DNA of 64,000 nt from Candidatus Cacconaster scatequi. Its GTDB lineage: Bacteria; Bacteroidota; Bacteroidia; Bacteroidales; UBA932. The stretch covers positions 1 through 64,000 of the forward strand of contig JAGHTO010000004.1 of assembly GCA_018065305.1 (NCBI GenBank). The letters are read 5' to 3'. A model generated the notes under the pieces. The model was not told where the DNA came from, searched no databases, and worked only from the letters and a program-made list of their open reading frames with translations. This document shows, one piece after another, positions 48,168 to 54,692 of the stretch (position 1 is its first letter; each line of letters opens with the position of its first letter). The translations under genes and the position numbers were made by a program.

Positions 48168-48854
48168 CTACAGCAGAGGTGATTTTTTGCTGATTCCAGG
48201 CTTGAAATCCTTGAGATAGAAAGGTTCGAAGTACGCAGTGTCTTCGAACTTTTTCTTTTCGTATGCATCAGTTGCCTTGCCCGCCATATACTGCGCCAGC
48301 GGGAAGCACTCCTTGAAGCGGGCGTTGGGGTGGATGCAGACTTGCGCGAATTTTTCAACTCCGGTGCCGATGAACAGCGTCTTCCCCTGTTCCAGGATGG
48401 AACTGTAACTGTCTCGGTCCAGAATAACGGCTTCCACTTCGGATATGCGGCTGCCGTCATTGCGGTAGACAGCGCTGTAAACTTCCATTCTTCTGGCATC
48501 TATGAAGGGTACGATAAAATCAGGGTTTTCTCCGCTTTCCATCCCTTCGGCGACAAGAATGTCCATCGTCTCCACGGATATCAGGGGAACCCCTGCTCCG
48601 AAGCAGAGTCCCTTGGCAGTTGACACGCCTACCCGCAGACCTGTGTATGAGCCGGGACCTCCGCTTACCGCCACTGCATCAATTCCGGCCGTTCCCGTGC
48701 CGGTCTGCTCAAGGAGAGAGGCTGCCATCGGCACCAGTCTGGCGGCGTGAACCTTTGGGATGGAATCAGCTGTTTTCGCGATGATTGAGCCATCTTTGCA
48801 GATGGCTGCACTGCAGCAGTCAGTGCTTGTCTCCAGAAGCAGTATTGTGGCCAT
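48168..48854 (-). CDS. tsaB: tRNA threonylcarbamoyladenosine synthesis protein TsaB
   Basis: The 228-residue protein is the dimerisation partner of TsaD in forming t6A37 in tRNAs reading ANN codons. It has the ASKHA-type start LLLETSTDCCSAAICKDG, then VAVSGGPGSYTGLRVGVSTA and KGLCFGAGVPLISVETMDIL. It follows the adaptor gene with a single base between stop and start and converges with the thioredoxin-like lipoprotein. Being an essential gene, it may be read from the secretion operon or from an internal promoter. Confidence 0.94.
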   Translation of the reverse strand: MATILLLETSTDCCSAAICKDGSIIAKTADSIPKVHAARLVPMAASLLEQTGTGTAGIDAVAVSGGPGSYTGLRVGVSTAKGLCFGAGVPLISVETMDILVAEGMESGENPDFIVPFIDARRMEVYSAVYRNDGSRISEVEAVILDRDSYSSILEQGKTLFIGTGVEKFAQVCIHPNARFKECFPLAQYMAGKATDAYEKKKFEDTAYFEPFYLKDFKPGISKKSPLL

Positions 48855-48855
48855 T

Positions 48856-50028
48856 TCAGTAAATCTTGACTTTTTGTCCGTCCGTCAATTCCTTGTTTAT
48901 CGCTGAAAGGGGGGCCGTTACAATTGTCTCGCCGGGCTCCAGTCCTTTCACGACTTCAATCTCTTTCAAATTCTGCATACCGGTCGAAACAGCCCGCCTT
49001 TCAACGGTGCAGTCATCGTGGAGCACCCATACGAATTCCTGTCTCTCCTTCGTAAAGACGCTCCCGAGCGGGATGCTCAGACAGGACTGCTCAAATCCTG
49101 TCACAATTGAGGCGGATGCCGACATTCCTGGCAGAAGTTTATCCTCGGAAGGTTCGATTTCCAACCTGACCTCAAAGTTAGTGAGCTTTTCGAAAGATGT
49201 GTCCATATTTTTAGCGGAATTTGAGATTTTAGTAATTCTTCCGGTGAATATCCGCCTCGGATAAGCATCTATTTCGATGGAAGCGCTGTCTCCTTCATTC
49301 ATTCTGATGACATCATTCTCGCTCACATCCACTACAAGTTCCATCCTTCGGGGATCCGCTATTCTCAACATTTCAGTTCCCGCCATCTGGCTGGTTCCGA
49401 CGACTCTTTCCCCCGGCTCGACGCTGAGTTTCGATACTATTCCTTCGATAGGGGAGATGATGGTGGTTTTTGCCAGACTTTCCAACGCCTCTTTCAACTC
49501 TGCTTCTCCACTGCGTATCGTGTATTCTGAGGCAAGGACGTTTTGTTTGGCGATGTCGAAAGATGCCTGCGCCGCTTCGTATTCGGAGGTGGAGATAGCG
49601 TCTTCCTCAATCAGAGCCGTACTCCTTTTGTACTCCAGGTCGGCTTTTGTCAGTTCGGCCTGGTTCCTGCTGCGCTGCGCCTTCAGCGCCGCCAGAGAGG
49701 CTTTCGCCCGCTCCACTCTGGAAAGATATACATCCTGCCGGATAAGTATGAGAGTGTCGCCGCAGCGGACGGAATCTCCTTCGCAGCACTTGATGCCGAC
49801 AATTTCTCCGGAAACGTCAGGTGAGAGTCTGACCTCTTTCACCGGGTGAATCTTCCCGCTTGCAGGTATGGATTCCTCTATGTTTCCGGGATAGACCGTA
49901 AGAGTCTCCACCACAACGGCTTTTCTGCCGCAGGATCTGGCTGCAATGCAGATTGTCACTATCAGTACGGCCGCGAAGATCAGAATGGCTCTGTTTCTGC
50001 CGATTTTCACATTAATCTTTATTTTCAT
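48856..50028 (-). CDS. Periplasmic adaptor (HlyD/MacA-like) of a peptide exporter
   Basis: The 390-residue membrane fusion protein has one N-terminal span (AILIFAAVLIVTICIAARSC), a first lipoyl half (VEESIPASGKIHPVKEVRLS-like region), a helical hairpin (SRVERAKASLAALKAQRSRN), a second lipoyl half (TTIISPIEGIVSKLSVEPGE) and beta-barrel and membrane-proximal domains. It links an inner-membrane exporter to a TolC-type duct. No MacB-like ATPase follows; the transporter in the run is the C39 ABC protein, which it most likely serves. It begins two bases after the tolC-like stop. Confidence 0.9.
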   Translation of the reverse strand: MKIKINVKIGRNRAILIFAAVLIVTICIAARSCGRKAVVVETLTVYPGNIEESIPASGKIHPVKEVRLSPDVSGEIVGIKCCEGDSVRCGDTLILIRQDVYLSRVERAKASLAALKAQRSRNQAELTKADLEYKRSTALIEEDAISTSEYEAAQASFDIAKQNVLASEYTIRSGEAELKEALESLAKTTIISPIEGIVSKLSVEPGERVVGTSQMAGTEMLRIADPRRMELVVDVSENDVIRMNEGDSASIEIDAYPRRIFTGRITKISNSAKNMDTSFEKLTNFEVRLEIEPSEDKLLPGMSASASIVTGFEQSCLSIPLGSVFTKERQEFVWVLHDDCTVERRAVSTGMQNLKEIEVVKGLEPGETIVTAPLSAINKELTDGQKVKIY

Positions 50029-51366: not shown

Positions 51367-51528
51367 CTAAATCCAGGAGATGATCTTGGCGAACAGTCTA
51401 GCGACAATGCCAAGTACATATCCTATTGTGTAAAGGGCATCCTGAGCTCTCTTGTCAACTCCGCCCAGAATGAATGCCGCCTCCTGCATTTCGACAGGGG
51501 CAAAGCCTTTCAACAAGTTTTCAGTCAT
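51367..51528 (-). CDS. Double-glycine leader peptide B (bacteriocin-like precursor)
   Basis: This 53-residue ORF is preceded by a strong AGGAGG ribosome site, unusual in this genome. It starts MTENLLKGF, ends its leader EAAFILGG at residues 22-23, and releases a 30-residue core VDKRAQDALYTIGYVLG plus IVARLFAKIISWI. The core is amphipathic, net positive by my count, with a GxxxG pair (G13 and G17 of the core). Leader positions L5, K7, G8 and E13 match those of the neighbouring precursor A. The C39 transporter encoded upstream should cut after GG. Activity, partner and target are unknown. Confidence 0.8.
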   Translation of the reverse strand: MTENLLKGFAPVEMQEAAFILGGVDKRAQDALYTIGYVLGIVARLFAKIISWI

Positions 51529-51540
51529 GGCAGATTCCTC

Positions 51541-51741
51541 CTATTTGATGAGAGGCTTGGCCTCAAAACCGTCCCTGAACCCCTGGAGGAGTTTCGGGAT
51601 GTAATCTCCGATGAAGTCAATCATGTTTCTGACCTTGTCAATGATTTTCTGCCACAGAGGGGATGATGCTCCGCCCCTGATCTGAAGTTCGGAAGAATCA
51701 ATCTCTCCAAACCCCAATCCTTTCATTAATTTGTCTTCCAT
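51541..51741 (-). CDS. Double-glycine leader peptide A (bacteriocin-like precursor)
   Basis: The 66-residue precursor has a 24-residue leader with ELQIRGG at its end (Ile at -4, Gly-Gly at -2/-1). The 42-residue core begins ASSPLWQKIIDKVRNMIDF and ends GFEAKPLIK, with an amphipathic helix pattern and a GxxxG pair (core G30 and G34). It shares LMKG and E13 with the leader of peptide B. It lies 51 bases after the transporter stop and 12 bases before the start of peptide B, in the same direction. Export and cutting by the C39 transporter are inferred. A role as a two-peptide bacteriocin or a signal is possible. Confidence 0.8.
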   Translation of the reverse strand: MEDKLMKGLGFGEIDSSELQIRGGASSPLWQKIIDKVRNMIDFIGDYIPKLLQGFRDGFEAKPLIK

Positions 51742-51792: not shown

Positions 51793-53868
51793 CTATGAAT
51801 GCGCATTCATATCTATCCTGTAATCCGCGATGCGGACATTGTCACTTTTGTGCGTAATCATCAGAATTGTCTTTCCCCTGTCTCTCAAATCCTTGATTTT
51901 GTCGAGTATGTAGGATTGGGACGCCTCATCCAGAGAGGACGTGGCTTCGTCCAGGATGATTACCTGGGGATTGTGGTACAGCACCCTGGCAAGGGCGATG
52001 CGTTGCTTCTGCCCTCCGGAGAGGATGGAGCCCCTGTCTCCCACTTTTGTCAGGAGTCCCAGCGGAAGAGACCGGATGAAGGCGGCCAGTCCCAGCTCTT
52101 TCAGTATTTCCGACACTCTGCCGAGATCGGGTTCACTGTCCAGACATGTGATGTTGTCGAGAATGGTTCCGTTCATTAACGGAGCCTCCTGAGGCACTAT
52201 TGAGATGTAGCTCCTCCATAAATCAGGGTCTATCAAGTCGATGGGCGTCTCTCCGACAAAAATGCGCCCCTTCCGCAGTGGATAATCCCTCATCAGCAGC
52301 CCGGCTATCGAACTCTTGCCGCAACCGCTCTCTCCCTGAAGGGCCGTGATTTTCCCTGCCGGCAGTCTCATCGAGAAATCTTTCAGAAGGACAGGGCAGC
52401 CGGGGTATGAGAATTCTATGTTGTCCAGCACGATGTCGTCCCCGGGGTTCGGTGTGAAAGGAAGGGATTCTCTCCCTTCACAGTCAAGGTCTTCGATTTC
52501 TCCGATTCTTTCGGCGGAAATGTTGGCTTCCGTCATAGCGTCGTTGATGCTTACAAGCTGGCTAAGCGGCGTGGAGAAATAGACGGTGAGCGAATAGAAG
52601 GAGACAAGCTCCCCCACGGAGAGATTCCCGGCGAAGATGAAGAGCGATCCGGCGGTCAGCAGCGTGACAGTCATTACTTTTGAGACGGCGTCGGACCAGC
52701 TGGCGAAGGCTCCGGCATACCGCCCCCCGCGGTAAAGTTTCCCGACAAGCTCCATATACTGACGGCGGATGGCTCTGAAATATGAATCCTGTCCTCCGAA
52801 GTATTTCAGCACTTTTACACCGGTTATGCTCTCCACTGTCTTTTCTTCGAAAGTGGCCGAACTTTCAATTATCTCACGGTTGAATTTCCTGTTGAACCTG
52901 TCTGCGACGGTATAAATAATGGCGTATAACGGGATAAAAGCCAGCATCATAAGTGACAACCGCCAGTGACTGGTGAACATCAGCAGGAAAGAAACTGTCA
53001 GAATGAGCAAGTTGGTGACAATGCCGGAGATCCCCTCGGTAAGGAAGTTCCTTATTTTTGAGATGTCCCCGATTCTGGAGTTGAGTTCTCCCGCTCCACG
53101 TTTTGTGAAGAAACTGACAGGGAGGCGGAACAGGTGAGACAGATATCCCATCACCAGCCTGCTGTCAAGGTGCAGGTTGAGCCTGAGGGAATAGAGCACT
53201 CTCCCGTATCCGAGAAACAGTGTGCAGACCATTATCGCCAGCATCAGACCGGTGGCTTTCACCAGTTCGGACATATCTCCGGAGGGCAGGACTTTGTCTA
53301 TGATCAATTGGAGGAAGAGGGCTGTGCAGATGCCGGCCGCGATATATGCCATCGCTCCTGCGAGCATCAACGCATATTCTTTCAAGTCTATCAGATGAAA
53401 ATACCGCAGGAGGCCCTTCCTCCCTTCGCGGTTGTTCCATACAGATTCCGCCTGCGGGTCGGGAGACATTGTGACAAGATATCCCGTCCACTCTTTTGCC
53501 AGACGGTCAAGTCCCATCTTTTCCATCGTTCCTGTCGCGGGGTCCATCACGACAGCCTTTTTCCTCTTCATTTCGTACAACACGACGAAGTGCAGGTCCT
53601 CCCTCCTGTTCACCGTGTGGAGGATGACGGGAAGGCTGACCTTTCTGAGACGCTCCACCTCCCGGTCCTTGTCCTTGTACGCTTCGCTGGAGAATCCGGT
53701 CACGCGGCACGCATCAATGATACCCTTTATTGTGGTGCCTGTCCGCGATGTCCCGGACTCCTCCCGTATGAGCGCTATCGGAATGTTCTTCCCGTAATGC
53801 CTCGCTACCGAGGCGATGCAGGCGGCGCCGCAGTCCGACTCGTCGTGTTGTTTGACTTTTCTATTCAT
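51793..53868 (-). CDS. C39 peptidase-containing ABC transporter (PCAT) for leader peptides
   Basis: The 691-residue exporter has three parts. Residues 1-130 are a C39 cysteine protease: Gln7, Cys13 in HDESDCGAAC, His93 in DLHFVVL and Asp109 in MDPATG, the same spacing as ComA-type enzymes. A six-span membrane domain follows (about 160-440). The ATPase has Walker A GESGCGKSS, signature LSGGQKQRIALARVL and Walker B VIILDEATSSLD. It cuts double-glycine leaders and exports the core. Its substrates are very probably the two small peptides encoded just after it. Confidence 0.94.
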   Translation of the reverse strand: MNRKVKQHDESDCGAACIASVARHYGKNIPIALIREESGTSRTGTTIKGIIDACRVTGFSSEAYKDKDREVERLRKVSLPVILHTVNRREDLHFVVLYEMKRKKAVVMDPATGTMEKMGLDRLAKEWTGYLVTMSPDPQAESVWNNREGRKGLLRYFHLIDLKEYALMLAGAMAYIAAGICTALFLQLIIDKVLPSGDMSELVKATGLMLAIMVCTLFLGYGRVLYSLRLNLHLDSRLVMGYLSHLFRLPVSFFTKRGAGELNSRIGDISKIRNFLTEGISGIVTNLLILTVSFLLMFTSHWRLSLMMLAFIPLYAIIYTVADRFNRKFNREIIESSATFEEKTVESITGVKVLKYFGGQDSYFRAIRRQYMELVGKLYRGGRYAGAFASWSDAVSKVMTVTLLTAGSLFIFAGNLSVGELVSFYSLTVYFSTPLSQLVSINDAMTEANISAERIGEIEDLDCEGRESLPFTPNPGDDIVLDNIEFSYPGCPVLLKDFSMRLPAGKITALQGESGCGKSSIAGLLMRDYPLRKGRIFVGETPIDLIDPDLWRSYISIVPQEAPLMNGTILDNITCLDSEPDLGRVSEILKELGLAAFIRSLPLGLLTKVGDRGSILSGGQKQRIALARVLYHNPQVIILDEATSSLDEASQSYILDKIKDLRDRGKTILMITHKSDNVRIADYRIDMNAHS

Positions 53869-53959: not shown

Positions 53960-54115
53960 TCAGTATAATAAAATGACCGAGAGGACGGAGAGCAGAAGTG
54001 TTGCGGTGATTAGCAAGCAGAAGAAGAAATTGGAACTCCCGGGGAGTTGTGGCAACATATCTTCGGCCATACCGTCCAGCTCGGCCAAGGGTAAGATTTT
54101 TCTTTCGTTTTTCAT
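53960..54115 (-). CDS. Small single-span membrane protein, possible immunity or accessory factor
   Basis: A 51-residue ORF starts at ATG 54115 (MKNERKILPLAELDGMAEDM), has a hydrophilic N-terminal half and one membrane span at the end (FFFCLLITATLLLSVLSVIL). It stands 91 bases before the transporter gene on the same strand. Small membrane proteins near bacteriocin exporters are often immunity proteins, but this one matches no family I know. It has no double-glycine leader and might be a false ORF. A near-consensus box (GACCTTTG) ends four bases before the ATG. Confidence 0.5.
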   Translation of the reverse strand: MKNERKILPLAELDGMAEDMLPQLPGSSNFFFCLLITATLLLSVLSVILLY

Positions 54116-54206: not shown

Positions 54207-54692
54207 TCAGAAGATTTGTTTGAAATATGGAAAAATCTGTTTTGCCAGATCCAGCAGGAGGGGATAGAATTTTGAGCTCCCTATTTGCCCCTCAGGGATG
54301 AAGTGCATCAGGTTGTTGGCTGAGTCCACAAGGAAGATTATGGAGGAGAGGGCCACTATGAAAATGAGGCAGGAGACCGCCAGTCCCAGCAGGCGGTTGA
54401 CCCATCCCAGAAGAGTTATCTGTAAAACTTTCTCCACAAGTCGCCCGAAAAGAGTGAAAACAATGGCGATTCCAAAAAAAATCAAGACAAACGAAATTGT
54501 TTTTGCAGCGAAAGGGGCGATTTTAAGATGCCCGCCAATCCACTCGATGACGGGAGCGGAGAACCGGAGGGAGAGGGTTATGCCGAAATAGACGGTGCAG
54601 AAGCTGATGAGCAGTTTGACCAGCCCCTTCTTCAGCCCGAAGTAGATGCAGGGCAGAATGCATAGAATGAGTATGATGTCGATTGTTCCCAT
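54207..54692 (-). CDS. CvpA family membrane protein
   Basis: The 161-residue membrane protein starts at ATG 54692 (MGTIDIILILCILPCIYFGL). It has four hydrophobic spans with the family's early GLKKGLVKLL and the middle GRLVEKVLQITLLGWVNRL. CvpA is needed for colicin V production in E. coli and, in other bacteria, for resistance to bile acids and envelope stress; its biochemical role is unknown. The gene lies 91 bases before the small membrane protein of the export locus, and it diverges from ileS. Confidence 0.88.
   Translation of the reverse strand: MGTIDIILILCILPCIYFGLKKGLVKLLISFCTVYFGITLSLRFSAPVIEWIGGHLKIAPFAAKTISFVLIFFGIAIVFTLFGRLVEKVLQITLLGWVNRLLGLAVSCLIFIVALSSIIFLVDSANNLMHFIPEGQIGSSKFYPLLLDLAKQIFPYFKQIF

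What the first reader, a model, noticed from the sequence alone, without database searches (positions are those of the whole stretch)
51367..51741. The two precursors have matched leaders and a GxxxG motif in each core
Leader positions L5, K7, G8 and E13 are the same in both, which suggests a duplicated leader with diverged cores. Each core carries one GxxxG (peptide A core 30-34, peptide B core 13-17), a feature of two-peptide (class IIb) bacteriocins, where it mediates helix pairing. My hand count gives net +2 for each core. Such a pair in a Gram-negative host would be notable.
Basis: partly seen in the sequence, partly recalled or inferred. Interest (0 to 1): 0.72.

Follow-up and report, generated by a model that had tools for sequence, protein, structure and literature searches.

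The report
Conserved two-peptide bacteriocin-like locus in Bacteroidales
Two small secreted-peptide genes next to their own cutting-and-export pump are kept as a pair, each with the same helix-pairing motif, across at least ten genera of one family of gut bacteria; they look like a Gram-negative version of two-part bacterial toxins, although toxicity has not been shown.

Summary
On the minus strand at 51367-51741 lie two GG-leader precursors: a 66-aa one (PepL, core 42 aa, GFRDG at core 30-34) and a 53-aa one (PepS, core 30 aa, GYVLG at core 13-17). Each core has net charge +2. They sit between a C39 peptidase/ABC exporter and tolC-hlyD genes. In the window alone the GxxxG motifs could be chance (P 0.13 and 0.06). 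Homologous pairs settle it: of 56 distinct pairs from 10 genera of the same Bacteroidales family, 55 long and 48 short cores keep GxxxG, and 47 have it in both (2.7 expected from shuffling); every short core keeps [G/A]xxxG. The pair is always adjacent, in the same order, beside the exporter, usually in the same place (ileS-cvpA-...-tsaB). In one genus (7 of 7 genomes) a CPBP/Abi membrane protease follows PepS, as in plnEFI. The 'duplicated leader' claim fails: real partners share no more leader identity than mismatched ones. Best reading: a class IIb-like two-peptide system of a Gram-negative clade, near-universal in the window's genus. Activity, synergy, immunity and target are untested; AlphaFold gives two helices but does not resolve pairing. 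The fixed inheritance leaves a non-toxin role open.

The parts
51541..51741 (-).
   Evidence: ORF; homologs in 98/199 genomes of the family at E<=0.01; between window and L031 12 synonymous vs 2 nonsynonymous codon changes
51670..51741 (-). PepL leader, 24 aa ending GG
   Evidence: GG invariant in alignment A1
51568..51582 (-). GxxxG of PepL (GFRDG, core 30-34)
   Evidence: GxxxG kept in 55 of 56 homologs; first G invariant
51367..51528 (-).
   Evidence: ORF; homologs in 115/199 family genomes at E<=0.01
51460..51528 (-). PepS leader, 23 aa ending GG
   Evidence: GG invariant in alignment A2
51409..51423 (-). GxxxG of PepS (GYVLG, core 13-17)
   Evidence: GxxxG in 48 of 56, AxxxG in the other 8; second G invariant
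51529..51543 (-). pepL stop codon (TAG) fused to a Shine-Dalgarno-like AGGAGG before pepS
   Evidence: TAGGAGGAATCTGCC ATG; spacing 0-22 nt or overlapping in all loci but one (51 nt)
51793..53868 (-). C39 peptidase-containing ABC exporter, 691 aa
   Evidence: Pfam PF03412 E 3e-32, PF00664, PF00005; catalytic Q/C, H, D motifs present in the window protein and in homologs; the only C39 domain found in the genome
50031..51347 (-). TolC-like outer-membrane channel
   Evidence: PF02321 E 9e-45
48856..50028 (-). membrane-fusion adaptor (HlyD/MacA-like)
   Evidence: TIGR01730 above cut-off, PF16576
53960..54115 (-). orf60 (51 aa from the internal ATG): small protein ending in one transmembrane helix; candidate immunity or accessory protein
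   Evidence: same position and pattern in most loci of the genus and, diverged, in others; KD19 maximum 2.73; function inferred only
54207..54692 (-). cvpA-like gene, upstream border of the cassette
   Evidence: conserved neighbour; abuts tsaB in L086, which lacks the cassette; name from recalled family resemblance, not from a profile search
48168..48854 (-). tsaB-like gene, downstream border of the cassette
   Evidence: conserved neighbour; name from recalled family resemblance, not from a profile search

Best explanation
The two genes encode the two halves of a class IIb-like (two-peptide) secreted system. They are translated together, their leaders are cut after GG by the adjacent C39 exporter, and the cores leave through exporter, adaptor and TolC-like channel. 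PepL forms a long amphipathic helix and PepS a more hydrophobic, membrane-length helix; they pair through their GxxxG motifs in a target membrane, most likely to harm competing, probably related, bacteria. Shown: conserved pair, conserved motifs, exporter set, helix prediction, Abi-type neighbour in one genus. Inferred: cleavage, secretion, helix pairing, killing, immunity (orf60 here, CPBP in the other genus).
For: GxxxG in both cores of 47/56 pairs vs 2.7 expected, with sequences down to about 20-25% identity. Pair adjacent and in the same order beside a C39 ABC gene in every locus of the family read. C39 catalytic residues kept; only C39 domain in the genome. AlphaFold on the natural in-frame PepL-stop-PepS stretch: helices over PepL core and PepS core at pLDDT near 78, leaders disordered. 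PepL hydrophobic moment 0.66, PepS KD19 1.72. In genus g21 all 7 genomes have PepL-PepS-CPBP (PF02517, E about 1e-14 in the two tested) in the order of plnE-plnF-plnI (plnEFI and Abi immunity in PMC4467070). One PepL homolog matches the ComC GG-leader family. A Gram-negative two-peptide precedent with a small TM immunity protein exists (Cdz, PMC5380434).
Against: No activity data. No proven immunity gene in the window. The locus is near-universal in the genus, single-copy and in a fixed place, whereas bacteriocin clusters are often patchy and mobile (Cdz-like systems). Pairing was not resolved by AlphaFold (pTM 0.42 and 0.29). Mirror-tree signal between cores is no stronger than with cvpA. Cores are not consistently cationic.
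Confidence: 0.56

Rival explanations
1. A secreted peptide pair with a core physiological role (kin signalling, envelope or surface structure, biofilm) and not a weapon; GxxxG serves assembly of the two helices at the producer's own surface.
For: Found in 22 of 24 genomes of the genus, and the other two lack an ileS match as well; the same chromosomal slot ileS-cvpA-..-tsaB in nearly all loci examined over 10 genera; single copy; none in plasmid or phage collections; no obvious immunity gene in most genera.
Against: C39 export of small GG-leader helical pairs is typical of bacteriocins; CPBP/Abi gene fixed beside the pair in one genus; cores diverge faster than the exporter (mean similarity 0.26 and 0.24 vs 0.41), as expected of peptides under antagonistic selection though also of small peptides in general; no receptor or kinase gene recognised between cvpA and tsaB.
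Confidence: 0.26
2. Two independent single-peptide bacteriocins that share one exporter; GxxxG drives homodimers or is only a helix-packing feature.
For: A GG peptide with a similar G..xG tail occurs alone in another family (L108); no computed pairing.
Against: In all family loci read the two are adjacent in the same order, often overlapping or with 0-22 nt spacing, over 10 genera; one copy of each.
Confidence: 0.11
3. Peptide pheromones of the ComC/BlpC type for cell-density sensing.
For: One PepL homolog matches ComC (3e-5) and one BlpC (4e-4) profiles.
Against: The matches are isolated and such leaders are shared by bacteriocins; no histidine kinase or response regulator lies between cvpA and tsaB; two cores of 28-49 residues are kept together.
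Confidence: 0.05

Closest known systems
Class IIb two-peptide bacteriocins (plantaricin EF, lactococcin G)
   Same: Two adjacent GG-leader precursors of similar size, GxxxG in each core, C39 ABC exporter; in genus g21 an Abi/CPBP gene directly after the pair as in plnEFI
   Different: Gram-negative host, tripartite export with TolC, no sequence similarity found, often weakly charged or acidic cores, fixed chromosomal place, no regulator genes seen between cvpA and tsaB, activity unknown
Cdz system of Caulobacter (CdzC/CdzD/CdzI, PMC5380434)
   Same: Two small glycine-motif proteins of a Gram-negative, type I secretion, small transmembrane immunity protein, CaaX protease gene nearby
   Different: Cdz proteins have extended glycine zippers and aggregate on the surface; Cdz-like systems are often horizontally acquired; here one GxxxG per core in the window and fixed synteny
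Bacteroidetocins (PMC6671954)
   Same: Bacteroidales host, GG leader, exporter with double-glycine peptidase domain, 42-aa core as in PepL, no obvious immunity gene
   Different: Single peptide with four cysteines; the window cores have no cysteine and come in pairs
Colicin V (microcin V) export
   Same: GG-leader peptide exported by C39 ABC protein, adaptor and TolC; a cvpA-type gene next door
   Different: Single peptide; cvpA here is a pre-existing neighbour (L086)

Membership tests
Class IIb two-peptide bacteriocins | two different unmodified peptides encoded next to each other | tested here: met
   adjacent in all family loci read; no modification enzyme gene seen between cvpA and tsaB, modification itself not testable
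Class IIb two-peptide bacteriocins | double-glycine leader and C39 exporter | tested here: met
Class IIb two-peptide bacteriocins | GxxxG or GxxxG-like motif in each peptide | tested here: met
   47/56 GxxxG in both; 56/56 with [GA]xxxG in PepS and Gxxx[GA] in PepL
Class IIb two-peptide bacteriocins | one dedicated immunity gene beside the structural genes | tested here: inconclusive
   CPBP/Abi in 7/7 genus g21 loci; only the candidate orf60 in the window
Class IIb two-peptide bacteriocins | antibacterial activity requiring both peptides | not testable with these tools
   needs bench assay
Class IIb two-peptide bacteriocins | helix-helix pairing of the two cores | tested here: inconclusive
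   helices predicted, packing not resolved
Named bacteriocin profile families (Pfam, NCBIfam) | match above the curated cut-off | tested here: not met
   no match for the window peptides; weak isolated hits in homologs only
Bacteroidetocins | single peptide with conserved cysteines | tested here: not met
   window cores have no cysteine and are two (bacteroidetocin features from PMC6671954)
Cdz | extended GxxxGxxxG glycine zippers of small hydrophobic residues | tested here: not met
   one GxxxG per core in the window with larger residues between (Cdz features)
Cdz | small transmembrane immunity protein | tested here: inconclusive
   orf60 has one TM segment; function unknown

The most novel reading that the evidence does not exclude
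A two-peptide helix-pairing system fixed in the core genome of a Bacteroidales clade, kept at one chromosomal place, that does not serve warfare in the usual way but an essential or social function of the producer.
Probability: 0.25. Interest if true: 0.8.

Novelty: new variant of a known kind. Interest (0 to 1): 0.62.

Why it matters
Described two-peptide bacteriocins are almost all from Gram-positive bacteria, and the small bacteriocins described from Bacteroidales are single peptides. A syntenic two-peptide locus that is near-universal in its genus and found in at least 10 genera would give a large natural set of peptide pairs for testing how GxxxG pairing and specificity evolve, and a possible means by which abundant, mostly uncultured gut bacteria compete or communicate.

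Tried and rejected
Recent duplication of the leader: rejected, partners share 2.02 leader identities on average against 2.21 for mismatched pairs. Mobile bacteriocin: no plasmid or phage match, fixed synteny. Co-evolution (mirror tree): partial r of PepL and PepS cores 0.31-0.41, but cvpA gives 0.35-0.38 with either core, so it says nothing specific. AlphaFold fusion of PepL-linker-PepS, two versions: helices only, pTM 0.42 and 0.29; VIA-align gave one chain at Z 3.5 with rmsd 13.9, meaningless. PDB sequence search: only chance-level hits. Bacteroidales promoter pattern: none at the operon in the window and not enriched in homologs. Order-wide search (393 genomes): outside the family only weak hits; one of them, L104/L107, is itself an adjacent GG-leader pair. 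Modelling a complex of two free cores was not possible with the tool.

Full report
'Genus g21' and the like are the anonymous labels given by the genome search.

Observation. Both ORFs are at the stated coordinates on the minus strand. PepL has a 24-aa leader and a 42-aa core with GFRDG at 30-34; PepS a 23-aa leader and a 30-aa core with GYVLG at 13-17; each core carries +2. The stop codon of pepL is part of an AGGAGG Shine-Dalgarno-like sequence before pepS. In the window alone GxxxG is not remarkable: P 0.13 and 0.06 by shuffling.

Surroundings. In order of transcription: cvpA-like, orf60, C39-ABC exporter, pepL, pepS, tolC-like, membrane-fusion adaptor, tsaB-like. The exporter has a C39 domain (PF03412, 3e-32), and it is the only C39 domain found in the genome. 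The peptides themselves match no Pfam or NCBIfam family. The names cvpA, tsaB, ileS, greA and the like for flanking genes come from recognising their sequences, not from a profile search.

Relatives. The closest named relative is Candidatus Cacconaster equifaecalis (97% identity for PepL), a Bacteroidales genus. Between it and the window PepL shows 12 synonymous and 2 nonsynonymous codon changes, PepS 7 and 4. A profile search finds PepL in 98 and PepS in 115 of 199 genomes of the family, including 22 of 24 of the same genus; the two misses also give no ileS match, so the region is probably unassembled. In 393 genomes drawn over the order only weak hits lie outside the family, but one of them, in another family, is again an adjacent GG-leader pair (SIATVIALIG..DFVAGFKAA.. 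and DQFMYDLGYLIGYLLK.., L104/L107), which suggests that the type may be wider than the profiles reach.

Synteny. In 41 loci of 16-17 kb or less the order cvpA-ABC-pepL-pepS-(tolC-hlyD)-tsaB is kept next to ileS, with a few rearrangements; further genera show the same. PepL and PepS are 0-22 nt apart or overlap, with one case of 51 nt. In L086 (genus g22), which lacks the cassette, cvpA and tsaB abut. So the cassette occupies a defined slot; whether it was gained once or lost in some genera was not tested with a tree.

Motifs. In 56 distinct pairs GxxxG is present in 55 PepL cores and 48 PepS cores, in both in 47; shuffled cores give 2.7 on average and 9 at most. All PepS cores have [GA]xxxG and all PepL cores Gxxx[GA]. 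Together with the leader GG and a tyrosine in PepL these glycines are the most conserved positions. These sequences are related, so the shuffle figure is not a count of independent events; but the motifs survive while identity falls to 20-25%. Core charge is not conserved, so cationic nature is not a defining trait.

Leaders. A duplication of the leader is not supported.

Immunity. In genus g21 all seven genomes read carry a CPBP/Abi-type membrane protein directly after PepS; in the two tested it matches PF02517 at about 1e-14, with EExxxR, FxxxH and HxxxN/D motifs read in the translation. This is the arrangement of plnEFI, and Abi proteins have been shown to take part in bacteriocin self-immunity (PMC4467070, citing Kjos 2010). 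Abi proteins also have other roles, and a CaaX protease gene near the Cdz cluster was dispensable for killing (PMC5380434). In the window the only candidate is orf60, a 51-aa protein ending in one transmembrane segment, conserved in position in the genus. Its role is a guess by analogy to CdzI.

Structure. pepL and pepS happen to be in one frame, so a natural read-through stretch could be folded with paired rows. AlphaFold gives one long helix over the PepL core and one over the PepS core near pLDDT 78, with the leaders disordered and the relative placement uncertain (pTM 0.42). A second version, with a relative whose PepS leader is shorter, was worse. Pairing is therefore neither shown nor excluded.

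Mechanism. Most likely a class IIb-like pair acting on membranes of competitors (0.56). The main rival is a core, non-weapon role, because the locus is near-universal in the genus and fixed in place (0.26). Membership in class IIb is not claimed: synergy and immunity are untested and no known sequence family matches.

Literature. No paper found in the library describes this pair. Small bacteriocins of Bacteroidales described there are bacteroidetocins (single, with cysteines; PMC6671954); a survey of Bacteroidales RiPP clusters notes PCATs with GG-motif precursors but does not mention GxxxG (PMC10352776). The Gram-negative two-peptide precedent is Cdz.

Noticed in passing
L089, L093, L111-L115: In one genus of the family a CPBP/Abi membrane protease gene lies between pepS and tolC in 7 of 7 genomes, as plnI follows plnEF.
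   Followed up: yes
window 53960-54115 (-): 51-aa single-TM protein between cvpA and the exporter, conserved in position over the genus.
   Followed up: partly
L053, L055, L062: A subgroup lacks tolC and hlyD between pepS and tsaB, and its PepS has AxxxG in place of GxxxG.
   Followed up: no
L107:4328-4663: A genome of another Bacteroidales family has an adjacent pair of GG-leader peptides of the same type without a C39 gene on the stretch read; a radical-SAM-like gene lies beside it.
   Followed up: partly
L086:988-1002: cvpA and tsaB abut where the cassette is absent, marking the slot.
   Followed up: yes
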